From Cantharellus purpuraceus (taxonomy: Eukaryota; Basidiomycota; Agaricomycetes; Cantharellales; Hydnaceae): a DNA stretch of 64,000 nt. Positions 21,300 through 62,800 of this stretch are shown piece after piece. The stretch spans positions 2,666,001-2,730,000 of the forward strand of contig JALBUN010000001.1 in the NCBI GenBank assembly GCA_025174535.1, given 5' to 3'. The translations under genes were made by a program, and so were the position numbers. Under the pieces are notes generated by a model. It was not told where the DNA came from. It was given only the letters and a program-made list of their open reading frames with translations, and did no database searches. Every line of letters begins with the position of its first letter. The stretch's first letter is position 1.

Positions 21300-24249
21300 A
21301 TGTTTCTGCGACTTCATCGTCACGCGTTGCTCAGAGTTTCGCGTGGATGGCATAGGTCGTTTTCCCGGCTGGAAGCTCCTATAGACGTCAGTCCAGAGGT
21401 AGAGCATGCACTGCACCATGGCTCTCCAGTGGTCGCTCTTGAATCTACCATTATCACCCATGGCATGCCACATCCCACAAACCTGGAGACTGCCCTCTCA
21501 GTAGAGAAGAAAGTCCGATCTGCAGGATCAATTCCAGCTACAATCGGTGTTCTGGACGGTCGCATCGTAGTGGGACTGCAAGGCCCCCAACTAGAGCGTC
21601 TCGCAGAGGGGAATGGCAAACCAGATCATATGAAACTTTCAAGGCGGGATCTGGCAGCGGCTGTGGGACTTAAAAAGTCGGGGGGTACGACCATTGCTGC
21701 TACGTCGCTCATAGCATCTCTTGTTGGGATTCGAGTGAGTCCTGGACGCTCTAGGTTTGGTCAAAGGGCTCGATGCTATGTTTATTAGGTCTTTGCTACT
21801 GGTGGCCTTGGAGGTGTCCATCGTGGTGGACAACATAGCTGGGATATATCTGCAGACCTCACTGAGGTGCTTCCTCTTGCTATGCAAGCCCCCGCCAGCT
21901 GATTTTCGGCCTTCCCTCCTCCTAGTTGGGACGAACGCCCATTGCTGTCGTCTCTGCTGGCGTGAAGTCCATCCTTGATATTGGCCTCACACTCGAATAT
22001 CTCGTGAGCTGTGATGAGGTACATACGTGATGACCAGTGAATATATACAAAATCACAGGAAACCCAAGGAGTCACTGTCGTAACATACGGTCCAACCTTT
22101 GAATTCCCAGGCTTCTTTTCTCCTCAATCAGGCTATCAGGTTAATCGTGCATTAAGCCGGCTGCAGATGGTGCGAAGGCGTACTGACGTTATGACGTAGA
22201 GCCCTTGGCGAGTTGATTCACCTGAAGCTGCGGCAAACATCATGGGCATGTCCACCCGCAGGTTCCAGCGATAAACGTATGCTGAAATTATGATTTGCCA
22301 GATGCAGGACAACGTCTTGGTTTAAAAAGTGGTGTCCTTTTCGCGGCTCCGATCCCGGAGGAGCATGCCGGAGCAGCTCAGGGGATCCAAGAGGCTGTAG
22401 AAAGAGCTGTCAAAGAATCGGAAAAAACTGGTGTAAGTATGAGTGGGAAAGAAGCCACACCATGGATTTTGCATCGTGTTGGAGAGCTCACGCAAGGCAG
22501 ATCGTTTCCGAGTAGTGAGTCGGGGCACTTCTCAGATATTTTGCGTATTTATTGTGCTTTCATTTAGATATAGCTCTTATAGAGAATACCGCATACATTG
22601 GCGGACAGATCGCTGCGGAATATGCGCGGCGTCACCACAACGGAACCGAGGAAACCAGTGTGAGTGAACGTTGTCTTTTGTTTTAACATCTAAGCGTGAA
22701 CAGTAGACCCCTACGTTGAGCCGTCCCTCGATGCCAAATGCTTCAGAAGATAAGACTCTTACGACACAGACGATCTCTTCAATCGCATCTGTATGTAATT
22801 AGTTCCTGTATTAATCAACGACGGTATATCGATATCTTTTCAGTCCCCAGCCACACTACTGGTGATTGGCGCAGCTGCCATAGACGTGATTTCGCAGCCT
22901 ATGATGTCGTCAACCGCACAGGCTCCAGTTGCTGCCAATTCGACACATCCTGGAAAAGTGACCTTTTCTTCTGGTGGCGTCGCCCGAAATATCGCTGAGG
23001 CTGCTCACCGTATTCTTTCAACTTCCAGACCCGGCTCTCATGAAGTTCTCTTAGTATCGCCTGTCGGGAATGACCTGCCTGCTACCTTGATAATCGAAAA
23101 TGCTCGAAACTTAGGCATGCGAACTGACGGCTTTTTGACTACCCCGGATCAGAGCCTCAGCTCGGCTATATGCAACATGCACCTCGATACCACAGGCGAC
23201 CTCACAACTGGTGTGGCAGATATGTCGATCGTTGAAGCAATGCACCCACATCGCGTGCGTCTTGATTACCGTATATATCACTGTCCGTTCAAACTATTCT
23301 ATCTTTACAGATAATTGAGATGATAGATAAGCATCAACCAAGAGTGGTGGCTTTCGATGCCAATTTAAGTTCGAATGTTATATCATCGCTGGTGCAGTTT
23401 TGCAGCCAACGCCAGATACCTAGTATGTGTAACACGTGTAGTTGCAATATGTCAATCTGATTTGCCTCCTACAGCTTTCTTCGAACCTACTTCAGTCTCG
23501 AAGTCTACGTCCATATTACATGCATTGAATGACAGGATAGGCGATGGAACCTTTTATTCATCACCGATCACATTCGCATCACCAAATCAGTTGGAGTTGT
23601 CACAACTTTTCCAGGCGGTCCGGTCTTGTTCATACGATTTATCCAGTAAGCCCTATTGGTGGTCCATCATGGATGACCTGAATCTGGGAGAGCCCTATCG
23701 CTCCGATCTCACACTATTATCCGAGCATGCGGTTACAACGTCACAAGGATCAAATCTCTTCAAAGGTGGCATTCCTCAGATGGCTGTCAGCTTGCTGCCT
23801 TTCTTCCAACACTTATTTATTAAATGTGGCGAAAAGGGTCAGTTTTGGAGATAAAACTCGCTGATGGCCAACTCACGGATTTCCTAGGTGTCTTCGTGGC
23901 TATGCGTGTAGTTGGGGAAGCAGCTTTGAGCGGCGATTGGACCCTCGAACGTACTCAGCCGGAACAAGGAAAACTTGTGGCGAAAGGTAAAAACAGTCTT
24001 TTGGTCTTGAAACATTATCCTGCAACACCCATCAAGCGCGAGCAAATCGTGAACGTCACGGGAGCAGGTGATTCTTTTGTCGGGTCCCTGCTCACAGCTA
24101 TTGGGAATGATGATTTACTAAACACACCGCGGAACTTCGATGAAGCTGTTGCATATGCTCAAAATGCTGCGTTACTGTCTTTATTCAGTAGTAATGCGGT
24201 CTCCCCGTTGATAAGGGGCGCCGTATCCAAACCAACGCAATCAAATTAA
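21300..24249 (+). CDS. bifunctional pseudouridine-5'-phosphate glycosidase / pseudouridine kinase
   Basis: Fusion of an IndA/PsuG glycosidase and a PfkB kinase, which together phosphorylate pseudouridine and split pseudouridine-5'-phosphate to uracil and ribose-5-phosphate. The N-terminus ([17 protein letters not shown]) is basic and may target mitochondria. Glycosidase landmarks are [41 protein letters not shown] and, across an intron, [21 protein letters not shown], then [16 protein letters not shown] and [15 protein letters not shown]. The kinase starts at [15 protein letters not shown]. It has [23 protein letters not shown] and the catalytic [14 protein letters not shown] near the end. 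More than ten introns. The stop TAA at 24247-24249 overlaps the stop of the opposite helicase gene. The next gene upstream is 155 bases away on the same strand. Confidence 0.9.
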
Positions 24250-26866
24250 GTCCTAAGACTGTTCGTTGATGATAATGGACCGACTTGGACCTGTTCACGT
24301 GCGCGACGTCTTGACTCCTTTTCGATCGTTTGGGCTACTTTAGAGGCTTCTTTCATTTTTTTCCTGTAACGTGCCTGCGCAGGTCGACCCAGTCAAAAGT
24401 CGTTTGCGCGTCAGACGTATAGAAATAGAATTCGAACCTGAGCACCATGTTTCAAACGCGTTATGATGTTGGCAGCCTCCCCTTTGGTTAGCCGGTCAAT
24501 TTTAAGATGTGAATCTGCATCCACTTCTTTCTTGGCGAGGCCCCAACGTTTAGCTATGAACTCTTTTTGACTTGATGATGCGGGTGCCTTTCGCCATTTT
24601 GCAGTACGAAAGAGTCTGTAAACAAACATCATAAAAAAACAAGCGCATTTACAGTAAACCATACTCACGACATGCTTAAACTACCAAACATAACCTTCTC
24701 TGTCGCATATGTATCACATCCTCGGATAGCGTCGCTCAGACTTTGAGCAGTGAGTATTCTTCGGCTGCGACGGAAAGGATTAGAAGGTGCCGTTCCCGGG
24801 TTAGCTGCCGTCCCATCTGATGATGCTGCAGTGTAATATGCTTGGAATGCCGGCTGGCCTGACAATGTTTGTAAAATGTGTCCCTCAAAAGCTAGGGGAT
24901 TTTCATACCGTTCCTATGGTCGTTCGCTGGTAATGGTTCCACCCGAATGTAACCTCTTCCCAGACATGCTAACACATACACCTCATCCCCGCATGCAACC
25001 CATGCATAACTACTCAAGGTTGCAATATGTGGTGAACCAGACGCCTCGGAGATCAAAGACTGTCAACAAGTAAACGAAATGTACATTGGCGTTTGAGGAA
25101 TGAGCTCACAAACGGGTTATCATAGTCGATATAAGTAACGGATGTCGGATCCGGGACATCGCTGGTAGTGAAACCGGGTGCGGCGACGATCAGCCGCTCC
25201 GCACGTTTTTCTAGAGAATCGATTGTCTCATCTGTGAACCATCAAAAAAACGAAGGCAAGTTCTGAATTTAAAACCGCGCACCTTGTACACCATCCTCCG
25301 GCTCCAGTCCAAAAAGTGTTGGCGTCGATACTATGCCTGAGACACGGGAATTGCTATCCACGAAATCAATGATACGACAATCCGTCTTGCCAGTGTTTGG
25401 AGAGAGTCTCATTCCTCGACCAATCTGCCGGGTAAGCTAAGGTGATAGTAAACAAATCTACAACAATGAGCTGTACCATTTGCGCGAAAACGTTTTTAGA
25501 GCGAGTGGGCCGTGCCACAACGACACAATCGATGTTCGGAATGTCGGCTCCTTCAGTGAGAATGGCTGATGATTGCTTAGAACTAGCATATATAATACAT
25601 ACGTGCATCTTACCACAGTTAACCAGAATAGGAAACTCGTTACATTTGAAAGCGTGGAGTAGTCCTTTGCGCTCTGCCACAGGTGTCCCCGAGTACAAAT
25701 ATCGAGCATCGAGGCCCGCAGACCGAAATGCGTTCGTAAGATCTCGCACGTGAGCTAAATTCGCGCAAAATACCAAGGTCGATTTTCGCGTTGCTATAGT
25801 GTGATCTTAAGTGGCTAGACATCTTCGACTGTTAATGAAAGACGTACCCGCTCTGTCAAGCCAGGTTTGCACGACAAGCTTGTTTACCGTCTCCGTATTT
25901 ATTACGTGTGCAAGGCTCGTGGCGTTAAAGTCGCCTGTTCGCGTATTGACTGTTACTTGAGACAAGTCTATTTGCGCTCGAACCGAAGTGAATCGGACGT
26001 CGCAGAGCCTGAGGACAGACATTAAGACGAATCGATGGTGTCAATGGAGACCTACCACTGATCTTTGATCATTTGTAAAAAATCGCGGTGATAAACAATT
26101 TCCTCAAAGACAGACCCAAGTGACAGACCATCATGTCGACCAAAGGTAGCGGAGAACCCAATTATGGGAATCGAGGCTATTCGCTCTTCCCGGGATGGAG
26201 GAATTGTGATCTCGGTGCCGACTGAAGGGTCAAAGTGCCCCAGTATGCGACGATATCTACGAAAGTATAAACCTTGTTAGAAGAACAATGTGGCCAGCGG
26301 AAAGCGCACGATGGTGCAGCAGCGTGATGTGCCTCGTCCACTACCACCGCTTTGAGAAATTTAGGATCAAATTTAGCAAGCCTTGGGGCTTGAAGTAACG
26401 TCTGATACGTAGCAACCGTGCTGTGAAGAATGTGAAATTAGCCTAGGAGAACCAGTTGAACGTATGCTCACACATCTGCAGCTCCTGAAGCACTATGTTT
26501 TGTTCCTTGTTCTATTTCTACGGACAGTTCCGGAAATAACCTTTCTACTTGAGCTGCGGATTGACGAGCAAGCTCGATGCTGTTCACTATAATTAGAGCG
26601 CGTTTGGCGCGTTTATCTCCACCTCTTGGAGGTATCCGTGAAATTAAGGATACGAATACAGTAGTTTTACCAGCCCCTGTTGGCAACGACACACCAATTC
26701 GTCGAACTCCGCTTCCTAGAGCATCCAGACAGGCTTGGAGGCATGAGTCCTGATAGGGCCGAAGTATGATTGGTTCTAGCTGCGCTGCGGTAGCGAAGCG
26801 ATGAAGAATCAAAACATAGGGAGAAGTCTGGAATCGGCACTGGCGGAATGCCTGGAGGAAGCTCAT
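24246..26866 (-). CDS. IRC3: mitochondrial DEAH-box helicase, Irc3-like
   Basis: Superfamily 2 helicase related to yeast Irc3, a mitochondrial DNA branch-migration helicase. The start at Met 26866 gives [18 protein letters not shown], a likely mitochondrial presequence; an in-frame Met lies at 26908. [19 protein letters not shown] leads to motif [13 protein letters not shown]. An exon near 26320-26350 has motif [11 protein letters not shown]. The second RecA domain gives [40 protein letters not shown] and, across an intron, [21 protein letters not shown] (motif VI). The C-terminal exon beyond 24420, after a CAG acceptor, reads [21 protein letters not shown] and ends TNSLRT at stop 24248-24246. 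That stop shares three bases with the stop of the pseudouridine gene on the other strand. Confidence 0.87.
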
Positions 26867-38564: not shown

Positions 38565-38628
38565 TCAGACATGATCATGTAGGGCAGCTGAGCGTCCACT
38601 AACCATGTACGGAACAACAATTCCGCGT
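38565..38628 (-). CDS. possible alternative last exon of the repeat-peptide precursor
   Basis: If the GTGAGT at 38684-38679 is used as a donor, a 56-nt intron with a CTGAT branch-like motif and the acceptor CCAG ends at 38629. The frame then continues RGIVVPYMVSGRSAALHDHV to TGA at 38565-38567, replacing the stop after MAP. Both forms are open; which is used cannot be told from sequence. Confidence 0.4.
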
Positions 38629-38680
38629 CTGGATGATCAGGTAATGAGCAACCTACGCACATAGCATCATTATCTTTTAC

Positions 38681-39733
38681 TCACGGTGCCATTACTGGGG
38701 AACCCAGGGACTCCCAACGCTTATATGGCTGGGGATCTCCGCCACTTTATGGGACGCGTTTCAACATCTATGCTGCGTGCAACTAGTGACTAGACTCACT
38801 TGGCCACGGTAGGGATCGAGTCTGGGATGGACGCCCGCTTGTATGGCTGGGGATCACCGCCACTTTATGGGACGCGTTTCAACATGCTGCTGCTGCGTGC
38901 AACTAGTGAATAGACTTACTTGGCCACGGTAGGAATCGAGTCTGGGATGGACGCCCGCTTGTATGGCTGGGGATCTCCACCACTGTGGAGTACGTTTCAA
39001 CATCTATGCTGCTGCTGCGTGCAACTAGTGAATAGACTTACTTGGCCACGGTAGGGATCGAGTCTGGGATGGACGCCCGCTTGTATGGCTGGGGGTCTCC
39101 ACCACTTTATGGAATACGTTTCAACATCTATGCTACTTGCAACTAGTGAATAGACTCACTTGGCCACGGTAGGGATCGAGTCTGGGATGGACGCCCGCTT
39201 GTATGGCTGGGGATCTCCACCACTTTATGGAATGCTTCAACATCTATGCTGCGTGCAACTAGTGAATAGACTTACTTGGCCACGGTAGGGATCGAGTCCG
39301 GGATGGACGCCCGCTTGTATGGCTGGGGGTCTCCACCACTTTATGGAATACGTTCAACATCTATGCTACTTGCAACTAGTGAATAGACTCACTTGGCCAC
39401 GGTAGGGATCGAGTCTGGGATGGACGCCCGCTTGTATGGCTGGGGGTCTCCACCACTTTATGGAATACGTTCAACATCTATGCTACTTGCAACTAGTGAA
39501 TAAACTTACTTGGCCAGGGTAGGGATCGAGTCCGGGATGGAGGCCCTCCTCGCCAAGGCAAGATCTACATCCTGGGGCAAACCACGGGCATTAGCCATGT
39601 CCTTGAAGTAGCATTACAATTATAGATTGCACTTATGAAGAGGGAGAAAGCTTACCTGGATGGGCATGGGCATTGCCGAGGACTTTGCAAAGATGCATGC
39701 CATGACGGCAAGCAGGATGGTATTGGACAACAT
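38681..39733 (-). CDS. secreted repeat-peptide precursor (Kex2-processed type), mini-exon array
   Basis: Predicted secretory precursor of 203 residues. Exon 1 (39733-39656) encodes a signal peptide, MLSNTILLAVMACIFAKSSA. Exon 2 (39601-39510) gives a short leader ending LALARR, then ASIPDSIPTLA. Six 63-nt exons follow, at 39455-39393, 39338-39276, 39222-39160, 39104-39042, 38982-38920 and 38862-38800. Each adds NGGDPQPYKR plus ASIPDSIPTVA. The last exon starts at 38744 with NGGDPQPYKR and ends WESLGSPVMAP with TGA at 38681-38683. Introns are 53-59 nt, start GTGAGT or GTAAGT and end AAAG or ACAG. Every cassette is bounded by Arg-Arg or Lys-Arg, so Kex2-like cleavage would free seven 19-residue peptides. 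An alternative 3' end exists: the stop is embedded in a strong GTGAGT donor. No match to a named peptide is known to me. The structure is seen directly; secretion and processing are inferred. Confidence 0.82.
38685..39510 (-). repeat. tandem exon-intron units, period 116-122 bp, seven units
   Basis: Seven head-to-tail units, each made of one mini-exon plus one intron. Exon starts on the minus strand are at 39455, 39338, 39222, 39104, 38982, 38862 and 38744. Exons are constant in length (63 nt) except the terminal one. Introns vary through a GCT/GCTGCTGCTG-type length difference near their middle. The array lies entirely inside the secreted precursor gene. Confidence 0.9.
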
Positions 39734-48929: not shown

Positions 48930-51500
48930 CTATGAATTTGAAAGGGAATCTACATCAATGATATTGCCTTGTGTTGTCTTGATCCTCTTATTTTGTTGCT
49001 CTAGGGCTACAGGGTCGACTGGTTCTTCAGTTGGATTCTCTTTCCGCTTGAGAGGTGACGTGCTACTGGATTCTGCCTGCAAGCTGTTCCAAGTAGGTGC
49101 GTTGTTGGGTAGCCAACCAGGGCGGCTAACTTGACTTGGCAAGGGTTTAGAATTTTCTGAAAGTATTAGTTCATTCTGTGTCTCTTGAGTCGTACTCGGG
49201 TTAGATGACGAAGGTGGTGCTATAGTTCTCCGTTTGATAAGGGCGTCGACCTCTTGCTTCAATATTCTCATGTCATTTGGCCACATTGTACGCCACGCAA
49301 TGTCCCAACTTTGCGTCGAATGGTAAGGCGCCTGGGGTAGAAGAGACAACGTAAGAACCAATATAGGTGAAGGCAACATAGCTCTGGACCTCGGGCCAAG
49401 AAGCGCGAGGAAATCATAACGCACCTTGCGCCCCACTGCATGTATCAGTGCATCGTAGGTCATGCCAGGATTGTGTTGAAGCTTGAACCGTACATATGTG
49501 AGAAACCACGCTCGATCGTTCTCAGTAAACTTGCTGTCGCTCCCGATGGGCTCAACATCAGTTGGAGGGAAGGGCGATGGAGACCGTGCTCGCGGGATAG
49601 TTAAAGCTTGGGGTTGTACATTCGGTGCAACCTTGCTCGGTGTTGGCTTCGGTGTTGGCTTCGATGCTGGCTTCGGTGCTAGCTTCGGTGCCGACTTCGG
49701 TGTTGGCTTCGGTGTTGGCTTTGATGCTGGCTTCGGTGTCGGCTTCGGTGTCGTATCCTGCATACGAAGTGGAGAAGAACCCGCTTTGTTCTTATCATCC
49801 TCAGAGGTAGAAAGTCGTGCTTTTGAAGAAAGGGGTTTCTTTCGCGCCGCCCCTCGCCCAACACCCGACGTAACGTCAATGACGTACGGCGCCACGGCAA
49901 GTAACTTGTTCGCCTTTTCGCATTCCTCGATCCATGTCGGGGAGATGGCTATTTTGTGGACAGGCAGGATGTCGAGAGCTTTCTGAAACTGGGTTGACCC
50001 TGAAAGCGTGATGAGTTATACACACGGCGAGGATGAGAAGAAAAAGAAGTACTGACGGATATTCAAGATGATGTAGTCGGCATCATCCATCTGCGAGACT
50101 ATGGCACCGTTATGTTTCTAGTAGGGGGTCAAACGTCATTGACAATAAAACGAGTTCAACTCCAACGTACCCGGATGATTTTTAACAGATCCTTTCGGTT
50201 CTTGAGGTCTATCATGACATAGAACGCCTGAGACACCCCCCTTGCATTCACAAAGATGCCACTCTTCATCTTGGGAACAGTCTCCTGTGGTTTTAGTGGC
50301 TTGCTCCGGATTGCCGTTTGAATCTCGTGGTCAGAGGATGAATCGTTTATCACCCGCCTTCTTGCTCCACTCCTACGAGAAATTGAGCGTTCCACTTCCT
50401 CTTCCTCAGATGTGACGGATGAGGTATCTGAATCTGACACAAAGTCTGAGCCAACATCTTCTGGAGTAGCACGGCTCGAGGTTCCTTGGTTGCTGCTAGA
50501 TGGAACGTCCGTGCCTGTCGATTGCTGTCCTATGTTGCCTACTCCTGACTGTTCAGGAAACCCCGCAGGCTGGGAGTTCAGGGCTTGCTGATTGACCGCG
50601 AATTGTTGAGCAAGAAGCTGCTGGAAAATTGTCGGTGTGAGGAAAGGAGCTAGTTGCGGTAAGGCCGGTAACTGTCCCGGGGCATGCTGATCCGGGCTAA
50701 CTTGCTGCTGAGGGAGTTGTAAAGCATTACTGAGCAATGATGCCAGAAGAGACTGTTGTAGAGCCATCTGTGAAGATGGTGGAAGTGAGATTGGAAAGGG
50801 TGTGTTCGTTGGCATTGCCGGATTCTGGGAATTTTGAGGGGTATCCTTTGAGCGTGACTGGGGAGTTGAAATGTGAGGATTGGCAGAGGTGCTGGGATGT
50901 CTCTGTTCGCCAGTACGTTCAGCATTTGAGGGATGACGCTGATGTGACTTGTTCGAGGATGTAGTGCTTGATCTCAAACGATATGGACCGGTCTTCGATG
51001 ATACTTGCTTGCTCCGGGAAGTCTTGGCAGCTTGGGATGAAGAAGCAGTACGACGCGAACGGGTTGGTCTGTCGACAATCTATAAGTCGGTTCTTGACCT
51101 CAAGAAGACATACCCACTTTTCTGGCTCTTCCTCTTCCTCTTCCTCTTCGCTAGCGTCATTATCTGCTATACCCTGGCGCAGAATTTCCGAGGTAAGCTC
51201 ATAGCCTGCCCATCCACGATCGCTGCCCAAGAACGCGTTCTCATCCAGACAATGAACTATCCATCGGGTGCTTAGTAGAATCTTATCGTTACGCCATGCC
51301 TCGAAGAGTTCTAAAGCCTCCTTAGTGTTGCTTTCCGCAAGTAAAATGTCCGCATCGAGTGCGGTGTTGACAATTGAACCGCCATTCTTGACTATTTTAC
51401 GTATGAGTGCGGCACGGTCCCTGACAGCAGCGGCTTCCACAAAGAATTTAAAACGCTCTCCTTTGTCATTAGCAAACACATGAGTTTGGAGGGAACTCAT
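48930..51500 (-). CDS. BRCT-BRCT-Myb protein, Rap1-like
   Basis: Probable telomere or chromatin protein resembling fungal Rap1. BRCT 1 spans roughly residues 5-105: FANDKGERFKFFVEAAAVRDR, IVKNGGSIVNTALDADILLAE and KILLSTRWIVHCLDENAFLG. An acidic run of consecutive Glu and a long Gln/Pro/Ser-rich linker follow. BRCT 2 begins GIFVNARGVSQAFYVMIDLKN and continues over introns KHNGAIVSQMDDADYIILNI and KIAISPTWIEECEKANKLL. A Lys-Pro-Thr-Pro repeat tract follows (coding 49620-49755). The Myb-like domain is SKFTENDRAWFLTYVRFKLQ and NPGMTYDALIHAVGRK, then across an intron APYHSTQSWDIAWRTMWPNDM. The C-terminus has KRKENPTEEPVD. BRCT plus this Myb type is the Rap1 signature; a second BRCT is unusual. 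Orthology is inferred. Confidence 0.75.
49620..49755 (-). repeat. in-frame KPTPKPxxKP tract
   Basis: Imperfect tandem hexanucleotide-type repeat (plus strand GGTGTTGGCTTC and GATGCTGGCTTC blocks). It encodes alternating Lys-Pro with Thr, Ala, Ser or Leu between the second BRCT and the Myb-like domain. It is likely a flexible linker prone to length change. Confidence 0.8.
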
Positions 51501-59838: not shown

Positions 59839-62800
59839 TCAACTCTTGTGCCTCTTGGCATCGGGTTGCTCCCCATCGTCCAAATACAGCGCCTCACTGT
59901 CCCCCGTATCCTCACGTTTCCTCTTCGTCTCAGAATTCATCGAAGGCGAAACACCTTCAATGAGCAGCAAGGAAGGCGCTTCAGCAGAAGTCTCTCCATT
60001 GGTTCCCGTCGAAGCCCCCCCCGTTGAAGCCCCTTCCATTCCCCTTTGCGAAGCCTCTTCGACAGTACCTGGTGGAGAATATTCCTTCTTGGGGACTGTC
60101 GGACTTCCTTCCGCGGCTCTCATCTGATGATACCTTGGCACACTTCCCAAGTCCCGGGAAGATAAAGTCCGGATAAGAGGCCTCCCCATCGATCTTGACG
60201 CTGGGTTCGACGGTCCTGTGGGTGCGCTGTATCTGCGCATCGATTGGCCTTCCAATGCCAGTATGTGTGGAGGCACAGAGTACGAGAAGACTGCGCTTGA
60301 GCTGGCGTTGCGGGCCTCGTCTATCGTCTCCCGCATTCTATCGTAGAAGCGGCGGTAAAACAAAGGGTCTGCTGGCCGCTGAGCACTTGTGGATCCTTGA
60401 TGAAGTAGTCCTTGAGGGACAGAAGACGACGACGATTGTGAAGCGCTTCCCAGCAGCAAGGAATGGTAAGACGGAGGGACTGCTGACCGCTGAGCACTTG
60501 TAGATCCTTGATGAAGTAGTCCTTGAGGGACAGAAGACGACGACGATTGTGAAGCGCTTCCCAGCAGCAAGGAATGGTAAGACGGAGGGACTGCTGACCG
60601 CTGAGCACTTGTAGATCCTTGATGAAGTAGTCCTTGAGGGACAGAAGACGACGACGATTGTGAAGCGCTTCCCAGCAGCAAGGAATGGTAAGACGGAGGG
60701 ACTGCTGACCGCTGAGCACTTGCAGATCCTCGATGAAGCAGTTCTTGAGGGGCAGGAGGCGACGACGGTTGTGAAGCGCTTCCCAGCAGGAAGGGATGGT
60801 AAGACGGAGGGCTTGCTGACCGCTGAGCACTTGTAGATCCTCGATGAAGCAGTCCTTGAGGGGCAGAAGACGACGACGGTTGTGGAGTGCTTCCCAGCGG
60901 GAAGGGACCTGAAGAGTGGTACACGTGAGGCCTCCTCGGAGGGACCGATGGCGCTTTGAAAGTGCTCATAGTCTGCGAGGCGGTGCTTTCTGTCCTATTG
61001 GTTGGAGGCGGTGGAGGCGGCATTGCTAAGCGCCGCTCAATCTCTAGCCGTCTCTGTAACTTCTCCCTGGTGCTTGACTTCACGTTCACATCCTCTTTCT
61101 GTTCCAGGGGCAGCCTTGGGGGCGCATTTTCCGATCGCGAAGAAATCCGTCTCAAACTAGACTTCCCTAGAGCCTCACGGCGCATGAATGGACGCAGACG
61201 AGATGACATGGTTGAGCTGTTCCCTCGTGCTGTGCCTATAGCATGTGCTGGTTGTGGCAGGGAACTTGTGAGAGAACTGTCTTCTCTCGGACGAGGGGGC
61301 TCGGGCAGAAAACCTAGAAGAGCTCGTGCGTCGGGCTGGCCCACATTAGTCCATAGAGTTGTCCGGTCATTTCTAGGCAACATGACGATCATACGTAGCA
61401 GCTCGGAACGGCACTTCTCGAGGTTGTGCCTCTCTTCACTGTACCCCGTTTCATGGGGCTGAGCGCGCAAGTTGGCGATAATGAAACGAGCGAAGGCTCT
61501 TGCGGCTTCCCGACGAAGGAATGCATGCTCTTCCGAATTGAGCTGGTAAGACGTAGGGTCTGCGTCTTCATCATCGAGCAGTGGATGCATTACGTCATCC
61601 TCGTCCGAAGAGGTACTACTGCTGATATCATCGCTGTCCATCTGACGAGCATTGTCCGATGATGGATTGGGGATAGCCCTTCCTTCTGTTTCACGAGACG
61701 TTGACGCTGTTTTCTGACGCTTCTTCGCAGGTTCGTCGTTATCGTCGGCGTCCCAGTCGTCCACAAATCGTACCGCCTTGGAGTCGACATTCTTCTCCCC
61801 AGTCCGGTCCTCTGGCTCGTTCGGTTCCTCTTCGAGACGTCGTTTCATCGCAGGCTTCCTGGGAAGTTCGGCGTTGCCTTCATCTAACGAAATGGTCATG
61901 GTATGTTCTGTTTTGACGGTCGTCCGCTCCTCGGGCACTGTCACCAGCACACCTAGTTCCTTCGCTGGTACCTTCCTGATGCGCTGCTTCCTCGGATTCA
62001 CTTTTGCACGGTCGGCTTTACCATGTCTATGGACCACTTCCTTGACGGGCTCTGAGGCGATTTCCTTCTGCTCCGGCTTATTCGTCTCGAGCTTCTTCTC
62101 TTCGGTCTCCTCCGCTGCTCTGTTTCCCTCCGTGTCACCGTTCTTCTCATCTGTGCCGTTGTTCTTCTCTGCCCTCTCAATATTCTCTTCCCTCTCGGTG
62201 TTCTTGTTCTCGTTCCCCTTCTCGACCTTGTGCTGTTCTTTCTCCTCCTCCCCCTCCCCCTCCTCCTCCTCCGTCTGTTCCTGCTGCTCCTTCTGTTGCC
62301 TTACGAGCAGCCGCTGAATCGCAGTCCTGTGACGATCGCCCTTTTCATATCTGGGCATATTTGACGTTGCAGGGTCCACGTTCAGAACACCCCGCGTCGG
62401 CCGTTGCTGCTGCTCCGGTTCCTCTTGGTGGGGTGTCTTGTCAACTGAATCTGACGGTGTGGGTTCGACAACAACAGCTGGAGCACTCGACGGAATTGAG
62501 GCAGGCGGATGGGGTATCTCAGACTTCTTGACGATGACTTTGTAGGTGTAACAATCAAGTTCGTAGCGATGAGCTGTCCAGGTGTCACCGCACGACCAGG
62601 CATCGAGATCAGATAATCGTAAACCACCATCGGGTTGCTGTTCATTCGTGTGAGCGAAGCTGTGGATGATGTTCAATACGAGGACCTACCTGCTGCTGCT
62701 CTTCTTCGGACAATGTCTCTTTCGAGACTTCCACCGTCTCGAACGGATCTGTTTTGGCAGAGTCGGCGAGATCACGATCCCTCGCTTCCCTGGCAAGGCG

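What the first reader, a model, noticed from the sequence alone, without database searches (positions are those of the whole stretch)
38565..39733. Secreted precursor with seven Kex2-bounded copies of one 19-residue peptide
Seen: a signal peptide, an Arg-Arg, then seven copies of a peptide of the form ASIPDSIPTVANGGDPQPY (first copy has Leu for Val), each followed by Lys-Arg, and a different terminal segment starting WESLGSP. Established: fungal Kex2-processed repeat proteins, including dikaritin/ustiloxin-type RiPP precursors, share the layout signal peptide plus repeats plus dibasic sites. Inferred: this gene makes a secreted peptide, possibly modified, of a kind I cannot match to a named product. 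The Tyr just before each Lys-Arg is a possible modification site. This is my best candidate for an undescribed system.
Basis: partly seen in the sequence, partly recalled or inferred. Interest (0 to 1): 0.92.

Follow-up and report, generated by a model that had tools for sequence, protein, structure and literature searches.

The report
Mushroom-type secreted repeat-peptide precursor gene
This fungal gene makes a secreted protein that is probably cut into seven near-identical small peptides; it belongs to a peptide family already known from mushrooms, and its unusual point is that every peptide copy is interrupted by its own intron at the same place.

Summary
On the minus strand (ATG 39733, stop 38565) ten exons join into a 223-residue secreted precursor with seven repeats ASIPDSIPT[V/L]ANGGDPQPY, each followed by Lys-Arg. 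Selection supports the splicing: 9 of 21 codons vary among the repeats, 8 of the 9 only synonymously (pS 0.177, pN 0.006; introns 0.140). This is not an undescribed system, and nothing points to a dikaritin: the 11 UstYa matches found in the 40-Mb genome all lie on other contigs. The core matches the peptide QIPAELPTKSINGNIEPY of Coprinopsis cinerea KEP 497993, detected there as a linear peptide (PMC9769878). Protein P0001 holds cores of both kinds, and a profile search found 18 relatives, among them Serendipita vermifera and Lentinula raphanica. New here: each repeat carries an intron at core codon 11, phase 2; the site is inferred from protein letters in two relatives. The terminal WESLGSP segment is probably a decayed eighth core. 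An unrelated precursor near a UstYa gene in this genome also has one intron per repeat. Verdict: new member of a known kind. Expression and function are untested.

The parts
38565..39733 (-). Whole coding region of the precursor: 10 exons, 9 introns, 223 aa (a 203-aa variant ends at 38681 if the last intron is not spliced)
39656..39733 (-). Exon 1, 78 nt, residues 1-26: signal-peptide-like MLSNTILLAVMACIFAKSSA, then MPMPIQ
   Evidence: hydropathy only; no SignalP run
39602..39655 (-). Intron 1, 54 nt, phase 0, after MPMPIQ; relative P0014 seems to have an intron at the same place
   Evidence: the P0014 reading is by eye from the letters, not tested
39545..39601 (-). Spacer DMANARGLPQDVDLALARR ending in the first dibasic site
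39428..39544 (-). Repeat 1: ASIPDSIPTLA(N) in exon 2, intron 39456-39509, then (N)GGDPQPYKR
39311..39427 (-). Repeat 2: ASIPDSIPTVANGGDPQPYKR with intron 39339-39392
39195..39310 (-). Repeat 3, same peptide, intron 39223-39275
39077..39194 (-). Repeat 4, same peptide, intron 39105-39159
38955..39076 (-). Repeat 5, same peptide, intron 38983-39041
38835..38954 (-). Repeat 6, same peptide, intron 38863-38919
38717..38834 (-). Repeat 7, same peptide, intron 38745-38799
38607..38716 (-). Terminal segment WESLGSPVMAPRGIVVPY: probable decayed eighth core, intron 38629-38684 (56 nt) at core codon 11, phase 2
   Evidence: 0.65 bits, 47 of 200,000 shuffles as good; 9 of 18 identical to a P0016 core; intron
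38565..38606 (-). C-terminal tail MVSGRSAALHDHV and stop

Best explanation
This is a single-copy KEX2-processed repeat protein (KEP) gene of a basidiomycete-type fungus, a member of the conserved family that includes C. cinerea KEP 497993. The transcript is spliced at nine introns. The protein enters the secretory pathway, a kexin cuts after the RR and each KR, a Kex1-type carboxypeptidase trims the KR, and seven molecules of a linear peptide of 19 residues (18 if Ala is lost), (A)SIPDSIPTVANGGDPQPY, one of them with Leu, are released per precursor. The array grew by tandem duplication of a unit of about 117 nt made of one exon and one intron, so every peptide is split by an intron at core codon 11, phase 2. 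The six inner repeat exons are all 63 nt and keep the frame, so unequal exchange or exon skipping would change peptide number but not sequence. Shown by computation: gene structure, selection on the peptide, family resemblance, no UstYa match on the contig. Inferred: shared intron site in relatives, expression, processing, a linear product. Unknown: function. A signal to other organisms is my guess, because the C. cinerea knockout had no apparent axenic phenotype.
For: Structure. Selection. Family: the C. cinerea peptide aligns without gaps, 8 of 18 identical over IP...YK; 1 of 20,000 shuffles of ours and 0 of 20,000 of theirs score as well. A two-row profile of our precursor and that peptide repeated found 3 proteins at E<=10, the best P0001 at 6e-18; P0001 holds both SIPVEIAVKSNGGDPVAY (twice) and QIPAELPTKSDKGVLSPY. 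A four-row profile (P0001-P0003 and ours) found 18 proteins at E<=1, three with organism names: Serendipita vermifera, Lentinula raphanica, Hydnum rufescens. A core profile made from the relatives without ours gives our core 30.9 bits, 0 of 200,000 shuffles as good. An intron at core codon 11, phase 2 fits P0010 (57 nt; 464 of 100,000 shuffles of the insertion also fit) and P0014 (79 nt). P_proprotein (kexin-type) domain in the genome: 1 match. Repeat DNA at one place only. C. cinerea facts: PMC9769878, results parts 1-2 and discussion read, rest as passages.
Against: The search with the precursor alone found nothing at E<=1 among 7994 candidates. The C. cinerea peptide and P0001 found nothing in this genome at E<=10, although the gene is there: the similarity is distant and exon-by-exon search is weak. 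The relatives were collected with profiles that contained our sequence, so the core score is partly circular. Only 7 of 18 core residues equal C. cinerea's. Ours lacks the N-terminal Gln that becomes pyroglutamate in C. cinerea. The named Hydnum protein P0018 matches through its leader and shows no clear core. Introns in relatives were inferred from protein letters, not DNA; for P0014 1 of 3000 shuffles fit under tight rules and 91 of 3000 under loose ones. No expression data.
Confidence: 0.87

Rival explanations
1. A dikaritin-type RiPP: the cores are cross-linked through Tyr by UstYa-like oxidases, encoded elsewhere and acting in trans.
For: Same precursor layout; one Tyr per core; the genome has at least 11 UstYa matches, one near another repeat precursor. 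A P450 exon lies about 3.6 kb away.
Against: None of the 11 matches is on contig C1. The related C. cinerea peptide was reported linear. The nearest Pfam matches among the scanned frames, a mitochondrial carrier and ESF1, look like housekeeping. Umemura's most widespread type G-1 has 0 of 64 members with DUF3328 within 15 genes (PMC7329392), but whether this gene belongs to that type was not tested.
Confidence: 0.06
2. An alpha-pheromone-like KEP, trimmed by STE13 and acting as a mating or self signal.
For: Such precursors occur in Basidiomycota (PMC6339444, passages).
Against: After KR the sequence is AS-IP, not a run of XA/XP dipeptides, and the core ends in Tyr, not in AADW or PSW (PMC9769878).
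Confidence: 0.04
3. A structural wall peptide like Ustilago Rep1, in which repeated peptides act on the hyphal wall.
For: Repeat precursor cut at dibasic sites; Rep1 peptides control hyphal wall properties (PMC6339444, passage).
Against: The peptide is short, Pro-rich and acidic, and does not look amphipathic by eye (not computed); C. cinerea lacking the homologue grew normally.
Confidence: 0.02
4. A decayed or non-coding tandem repeat.
For: Exons and introns are duplicated together as one tandem array.
Against: Strong synonymous bias of changes, intact splice sites in all seven repeats, relatives with open frames.
Confidence: 0.01

Closest known systems
Coprinopsis cinerea KEP 497993 (PMC9769878)
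   Same: Secreted Kex2 repeat precursor; core of 18 residues from S/Q to Y, aligned without gaps, sharing IP...PT....G...PY.
   Different: Ours: N-terminal Ala-Ser instead of Gln/pyroglutamate, seven near-identical cores, Lys-Arg directly after Tyr; C. cinerea's continues YKV. Its full precursor was not seen.
P0002, P0003, P0016 (unnamed contigs), P0014 and Hydnum rufescens P0018
   Same: IPDSIPT, IPDSNPT or IPDTIPT in the N-half (not visible in P0018); 11 of 18 identical for P0002 and P0003. By eye P0014's leader resembles ours (MPLPLR / MPMPIQ, then AHARSL / ANARGL) with an intron between.
   Different: Two clear cores in each of P0002, P0003 and P0016, with other spacers.
P0001 and P0005-P0008 (unnamed contigs); P0010 of Serendipita vermifera
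   Same: C-half NGGDP..Y or DGGDP..Y in P0001 and P0005-P0008; some cores of P0005 and P0006 start KR-A-x-IP as ours do.
   Different: Several unlike cores per precursor; Tyr followed by PKR. P0010 has DGGAIVAY instead.
Dikaritin precursors (ustiloxin, phomopsin, asperipin) and epichloecyclin GigA
   Same: Signal peptide plus Kex2-bounded repeats.
   Different: Those are made with UstYa-type enzymes, clustered with the precursor for asperipin and GigA (PMC9233826, PMC8982410, passages); no UstYa match is on this contig.
Second KEP of this genome, C23 about 21,354-23,056, minus strand
   Same: Kex2-bounded repeats with one short intron per repeat; 9 of its 14 modelled exons are also 63 nt.
   Different: Unrelated core SLTPEQLKAESLTDVGTSG without Tyr, intron phase 1, and a UstYa match about 1.3 kb away.

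Membership tests
KEX2-processed repeat proteins (KEPs) | Signal peptide | tested here: met
   Hydrophobic N-terminus, best 12-residue mean 2.73; no SignalP available
KEX2-processed repeat proteins (KEPs) | Repeats separated by dibasic Kex2 sites | tested here: met
   7 repeats, each ending KR, preceded by RR
[quoted passage not shown]
   P_proprotein, 1 match, E 1e-20, contig C23, one TAA inside it, perhaps an intron; the catalytic domain was not checked. C. cinerea has three kex2 genes
KEX2-processed repeat proteins (KEPs) | Peptides actually released | not testable with these tools
   Needs LC-MS
KEP 497993 family | 18-residue core of the type xIPxxxxxxxxxGxxxPY | tested here: met
   30.9 bits, 0 of 200,000 shuffles, partly circular because the profiles that gathered relatives held our sequence; bridged by P0001; direct comparison 1 of 20,000
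KEP 497993 family | Intron inside the core at codon 11, phase 2 (proposed here, not from the literature) | tested here: inconclusive
   In this gene: 7 of 7 repeats and the terminal segment. In relatives: fits 2 of 2 examined, which were chosen because an intron seemed retained; protein letters only. Not known for C. cinerea
KEP 497993 family | N-terminal Gln giving pyroglutamate | tested here: not met
   Ours starts A-S; relatives also vary (Q, S, D, G, E, N), so I do not treat it as family-defining
Umemura type G-1 (type 7) | Grouping with its 64 members | not testable with these tools
Dikaritins | UstYa (DUF3328) gene beside the precursor | tested here: not met
   0 of 11 genome matches on contig C1
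Dikaritins | Cross-linked core | not testable with these tools
   Needs LC-MS
Alpha-pheromone-like KEPs | XA/XP dipeptides after the Kex2 site | tested here: not met
   KR is followed by AS

The most novel reading that the evidence does not exclude
In basidiomycetes, KEP genes commonly carry one intron per peptide, at a codon and phase that is fixed and old within each family (here seemingly shared with Serendipita and with P0014), and the same layout arose in an unrelated KEP of this genome with another phase. The intron then acts as the recombination and splicing joint that lets copy number change without altering peptide or frame, and it explains why gene predictors and protein databases miss or garble these genes.
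Probability: 0.45. Interest if true: 0.55.

Novelty: new member of a known kind. Interest (0 to 1): 0.42.

Why it matters
It extends a conserved mushroom peptide family of unknown function, gives exact masses to look for, and shows a gene layout (one intron inside every peptide copy, at a site seemingly shared with distant relatives) that I did not find described: the word 'intron' occurs 0 times in the main texts of PMC6339444 and PMC7329392 and once, in passing, in PMC9769878. If general, many such genes are mis-annotated and the number of basidiomycete peptide precursors is underestimated.

Tried and rejected
Rejected: dikaritin cluster, STE13-type pheromone (sequence), pseudogene, paralogues or dispersed copies of the repeat (6 matches, all in this gene; one place).

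Led nowhere: precursor alone against 5.8 billion proteins; C. cinerea peptide and P0001 against the own genome; Rfam on the window (0 matches); tRNA scan (0); Pfam on the precursor (0 families); P450 exon against the PDB (17 general P450 matches, no subfamily); tandem repeats in two of the 16 UstYa stretches (nothing useful); text search for pieces of the peptide (6 papers, none relevant). Literature on introns in Kex2 repeats: searches listed 5, 1, 1 and 0 papers; passages of five of them (searches cover these and one more) describe nothing of the kind. Newer or Serendipita KEP papers: searches listed 4 and 0 papers, none opened. The original GigA paper is not held, so whether gigA has introns in its repeats is unchecked. 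The organism was not identified.

Full report
Observation. The minus strand of 38565-39733 encodes, after removal of nine introns, a 223-residue protein: signal-like N-terminus, spacer ending in RR, seven copies of ASIPDSIPT[V/L]ANGGDPQPY each followed by KR, and a terminal segment. A 203-residue form results if the last intron is kept. Each of the seven repeat introns begins GTAAGT or GTGAGT and ends in AG; keeping any of them gives a stop at once (GCC AAG TAA or GCC AAG TGA; sequence). The array is a tandem repeat of period 117, 7.0 copies, and was found at one place in the 40.15-Mb genome.

The spliced frame passes an internal test. Between the seven repeats 9 of 21 codons vary, 8 of those only synonymously. 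The pairwise sums are 62 synonymous and 6 nonsynonymous differences (pS 0.177, pN 0.006). The introns, aligned, differ by 0.140 per site, with indels besides. The peptide is held constant while silent sites and introns drift. This rests on seven related copies in one genome, not on different species.

What it is. Kex2-processed repeat proteins were defined and surveyed in PMC6339444 (passages) and PMC7329392 (passages; section 6) and studied in mushrooms in PMC9769878 (outline, results parts 1 and 2 of 3, discussion, passages). The last reports that C. cinerea KEP 497993 yields pyro-QIPAELPTKSINGNIEPY, with and without a further K, mainly in premature caps. It also reports at least 13 homologues in other species and no apparent phenotype on knockout. 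I noticed the resemblance by eye and then tested it. The local score of 44, ungapped, is reached by 1 of 20,000 shuffles of our core and 0 of 20,000 of theirs. Of the seven other peptides of that paper compared, the best is the GH128-derived one, reached by 43 and 82 of 3000 shuffles in global mode.

A profile of two rows (our precursor, and that peptide repeated) found three proteins at E<=10. P0001 (6e-18) holds both kinds of core: SIPVEIAVKSNGGDPVAY twice and QIPAELPTKSDKGVLSPY once. A profile of P0001-P0003 and ours found 18 proteins at E<=1. Three are named: P0010 from Serendipita vermifera, P0015 from Lentinula raphanica, P0018 from Hydnum rufescens; P0018 shows no clear core and matches by its leader. 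The rest come from unnamed contigs whose longest is 0.9-2 kb; open frames across several cores there suggest transcripts (inference), though P0014 looks like unspliced DNA.

From the 18 proteins a regular expression drew 57 cores, 48 distinct. At least three of the 57 are not true cores (two of P0014, one of P0018) and were kept. Scored by a profile of these, our core has 30.9 bits and C. cinerea's 41.1, with 0 of 200,000 shuffles as good for either. Our closest cores are in P0003 and P0002 (11 of 18 identical), then P0016 and P0001 (10 of 18), against 7 of 18 for C. cinerea's. Because our sequence was in the profiles, this score is partly circular; the direct comparison and the introns are the more independent evidence.

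The intron. In all seven repeats the intron lies between the second and third base of core codon 11 (AA|T, Asn; counting S of SIP as 1). The terminal segment, read through its own intron, is WESLGSPVMAPRGIVVPY. Its intron also splits codon 11 in phase 2 (CC|A), and it scores above every other window outside the repeats, though only 0.65 bits. It is most likely a decayed eighth core. Two relatives seem to have introns left in their protein models. In P0010 an insertion into the second of two otherwise identical QLPAEVASKS-GGAIVAYPKR repeats fits a 57-nt GT-AG intron at codon 11, phase 2; 464 of 100,000 shuffles of the insertion also fit. In P0014 a 79-nt intron at the same place restores an ending of the family's type, (D/N)GVIVPF; 1 of 3000 shuffles fit under tight rules, 91 of 3000 under loose ones. 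P0014 also seems to share intron 1, by eye only.

Surroundings. UstYa (PF11807) has 11 matches in the genome (a lower bound by the tool's own note), none on the window's contig C1. Of 46 open frames of at least 150 codons in the window, 30 were scanned with Pfam. They include a P450 exon at 34.3-34.9 kb, a mitochondrial carrier at 36.4-36.8 kb, ESF1 at 40.9-42.8 kb, and farther off an aldehyde dehydrogenase, a helicase, seipin and others. No peptide-tailoring cluster is visible, but 16 frames and all smaller exons were not scanned. A kexin-type P_proprotein domain exists on contig C23.

A second case in the same genome. Sixteen stretches around the UstYa matches were scanned for repeated peptides beside dibasic sites. 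On C23 a minus-strand gene with a start codon at 23,056 has at least 14 units, which join into one open frame of the type SLTPEQLKAESLTDVGTSG-[KR]R (short forms end DVGG or DVGN). Its exons are 63 nt (9 of 14) or 57 nt (5 of 14) and its 14 introns are 47-49 nt, GT...AG, phase 1 (A|CC). It lies about 1.3 kb from a UstYa match at 24,378. So one intron per repeat occurs in two unrelated precursors of this fungus. The other dibasic hits (L023, L034, L035) looked like charged low-complexity repeats by eye and were not pursued; the stretches on C30 and C9 gave no hit.

Mechanism and limits. Secretion, kexin cleavage, carboxypeptidase trimming and a linear product are inferred from KEP biology; expression and function are untested. 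Literature searches on introns in such repeats found nothing relevant, but the library lacks most subscription papers, including the GigA paper. PMC9769878 mentions only that cDNA was used to obtain intron-less KEP sequences.

Verdict: ordinary in kind, a new and well-supported member of a known mushroom peptide family, with a gene architecture worth reporting.

Noticed in passing
G000 contig C23, about 21,354-23,056, minus strand (L030, L036): A second, unrelated Kex2 repeat precursor: at least 14 units of SLTPEQLKAESLTDVGTSG-[KR]R, one 47-49-nt phase-1 intron per unit, no Tyr in the core, about 1.3 kb from a UstYa match: a candidate dikaritin-like cluster.
   Followed up: partly
G000 contigs C30 38645-45771, C9 714287-718916, C18 143481-145068: UstYa matches in groups of three, two and two. 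No repeated peptide beside dibasic sites was found in the stretches scanned on C30 and C9; on C18 only a charged low-complexity repeat.
   Followed up: partly
window 60364-60905: 111-nt tandem repeat, 4.9 copies, 94% matches, inside a 948-codon minus-strand open frame (59839-62685) without a Pfam family.
   Followed up: no
window 49637-49751: 12-nt repeat, 9.6 copies, inside the minus-strand open frame 48930-50015, whose only Pfam match is below the cut-off.
   Followed up: no
P0010 (Serendipita vermifera), P0014, P0018 (Hydnum rufescens): Public protein models of this family seem to retain or misplace introns inside the peptide (P0010, P0014 tested; P0018 by eye), so such precursors are probably under-annotated.
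   Followed up: partly
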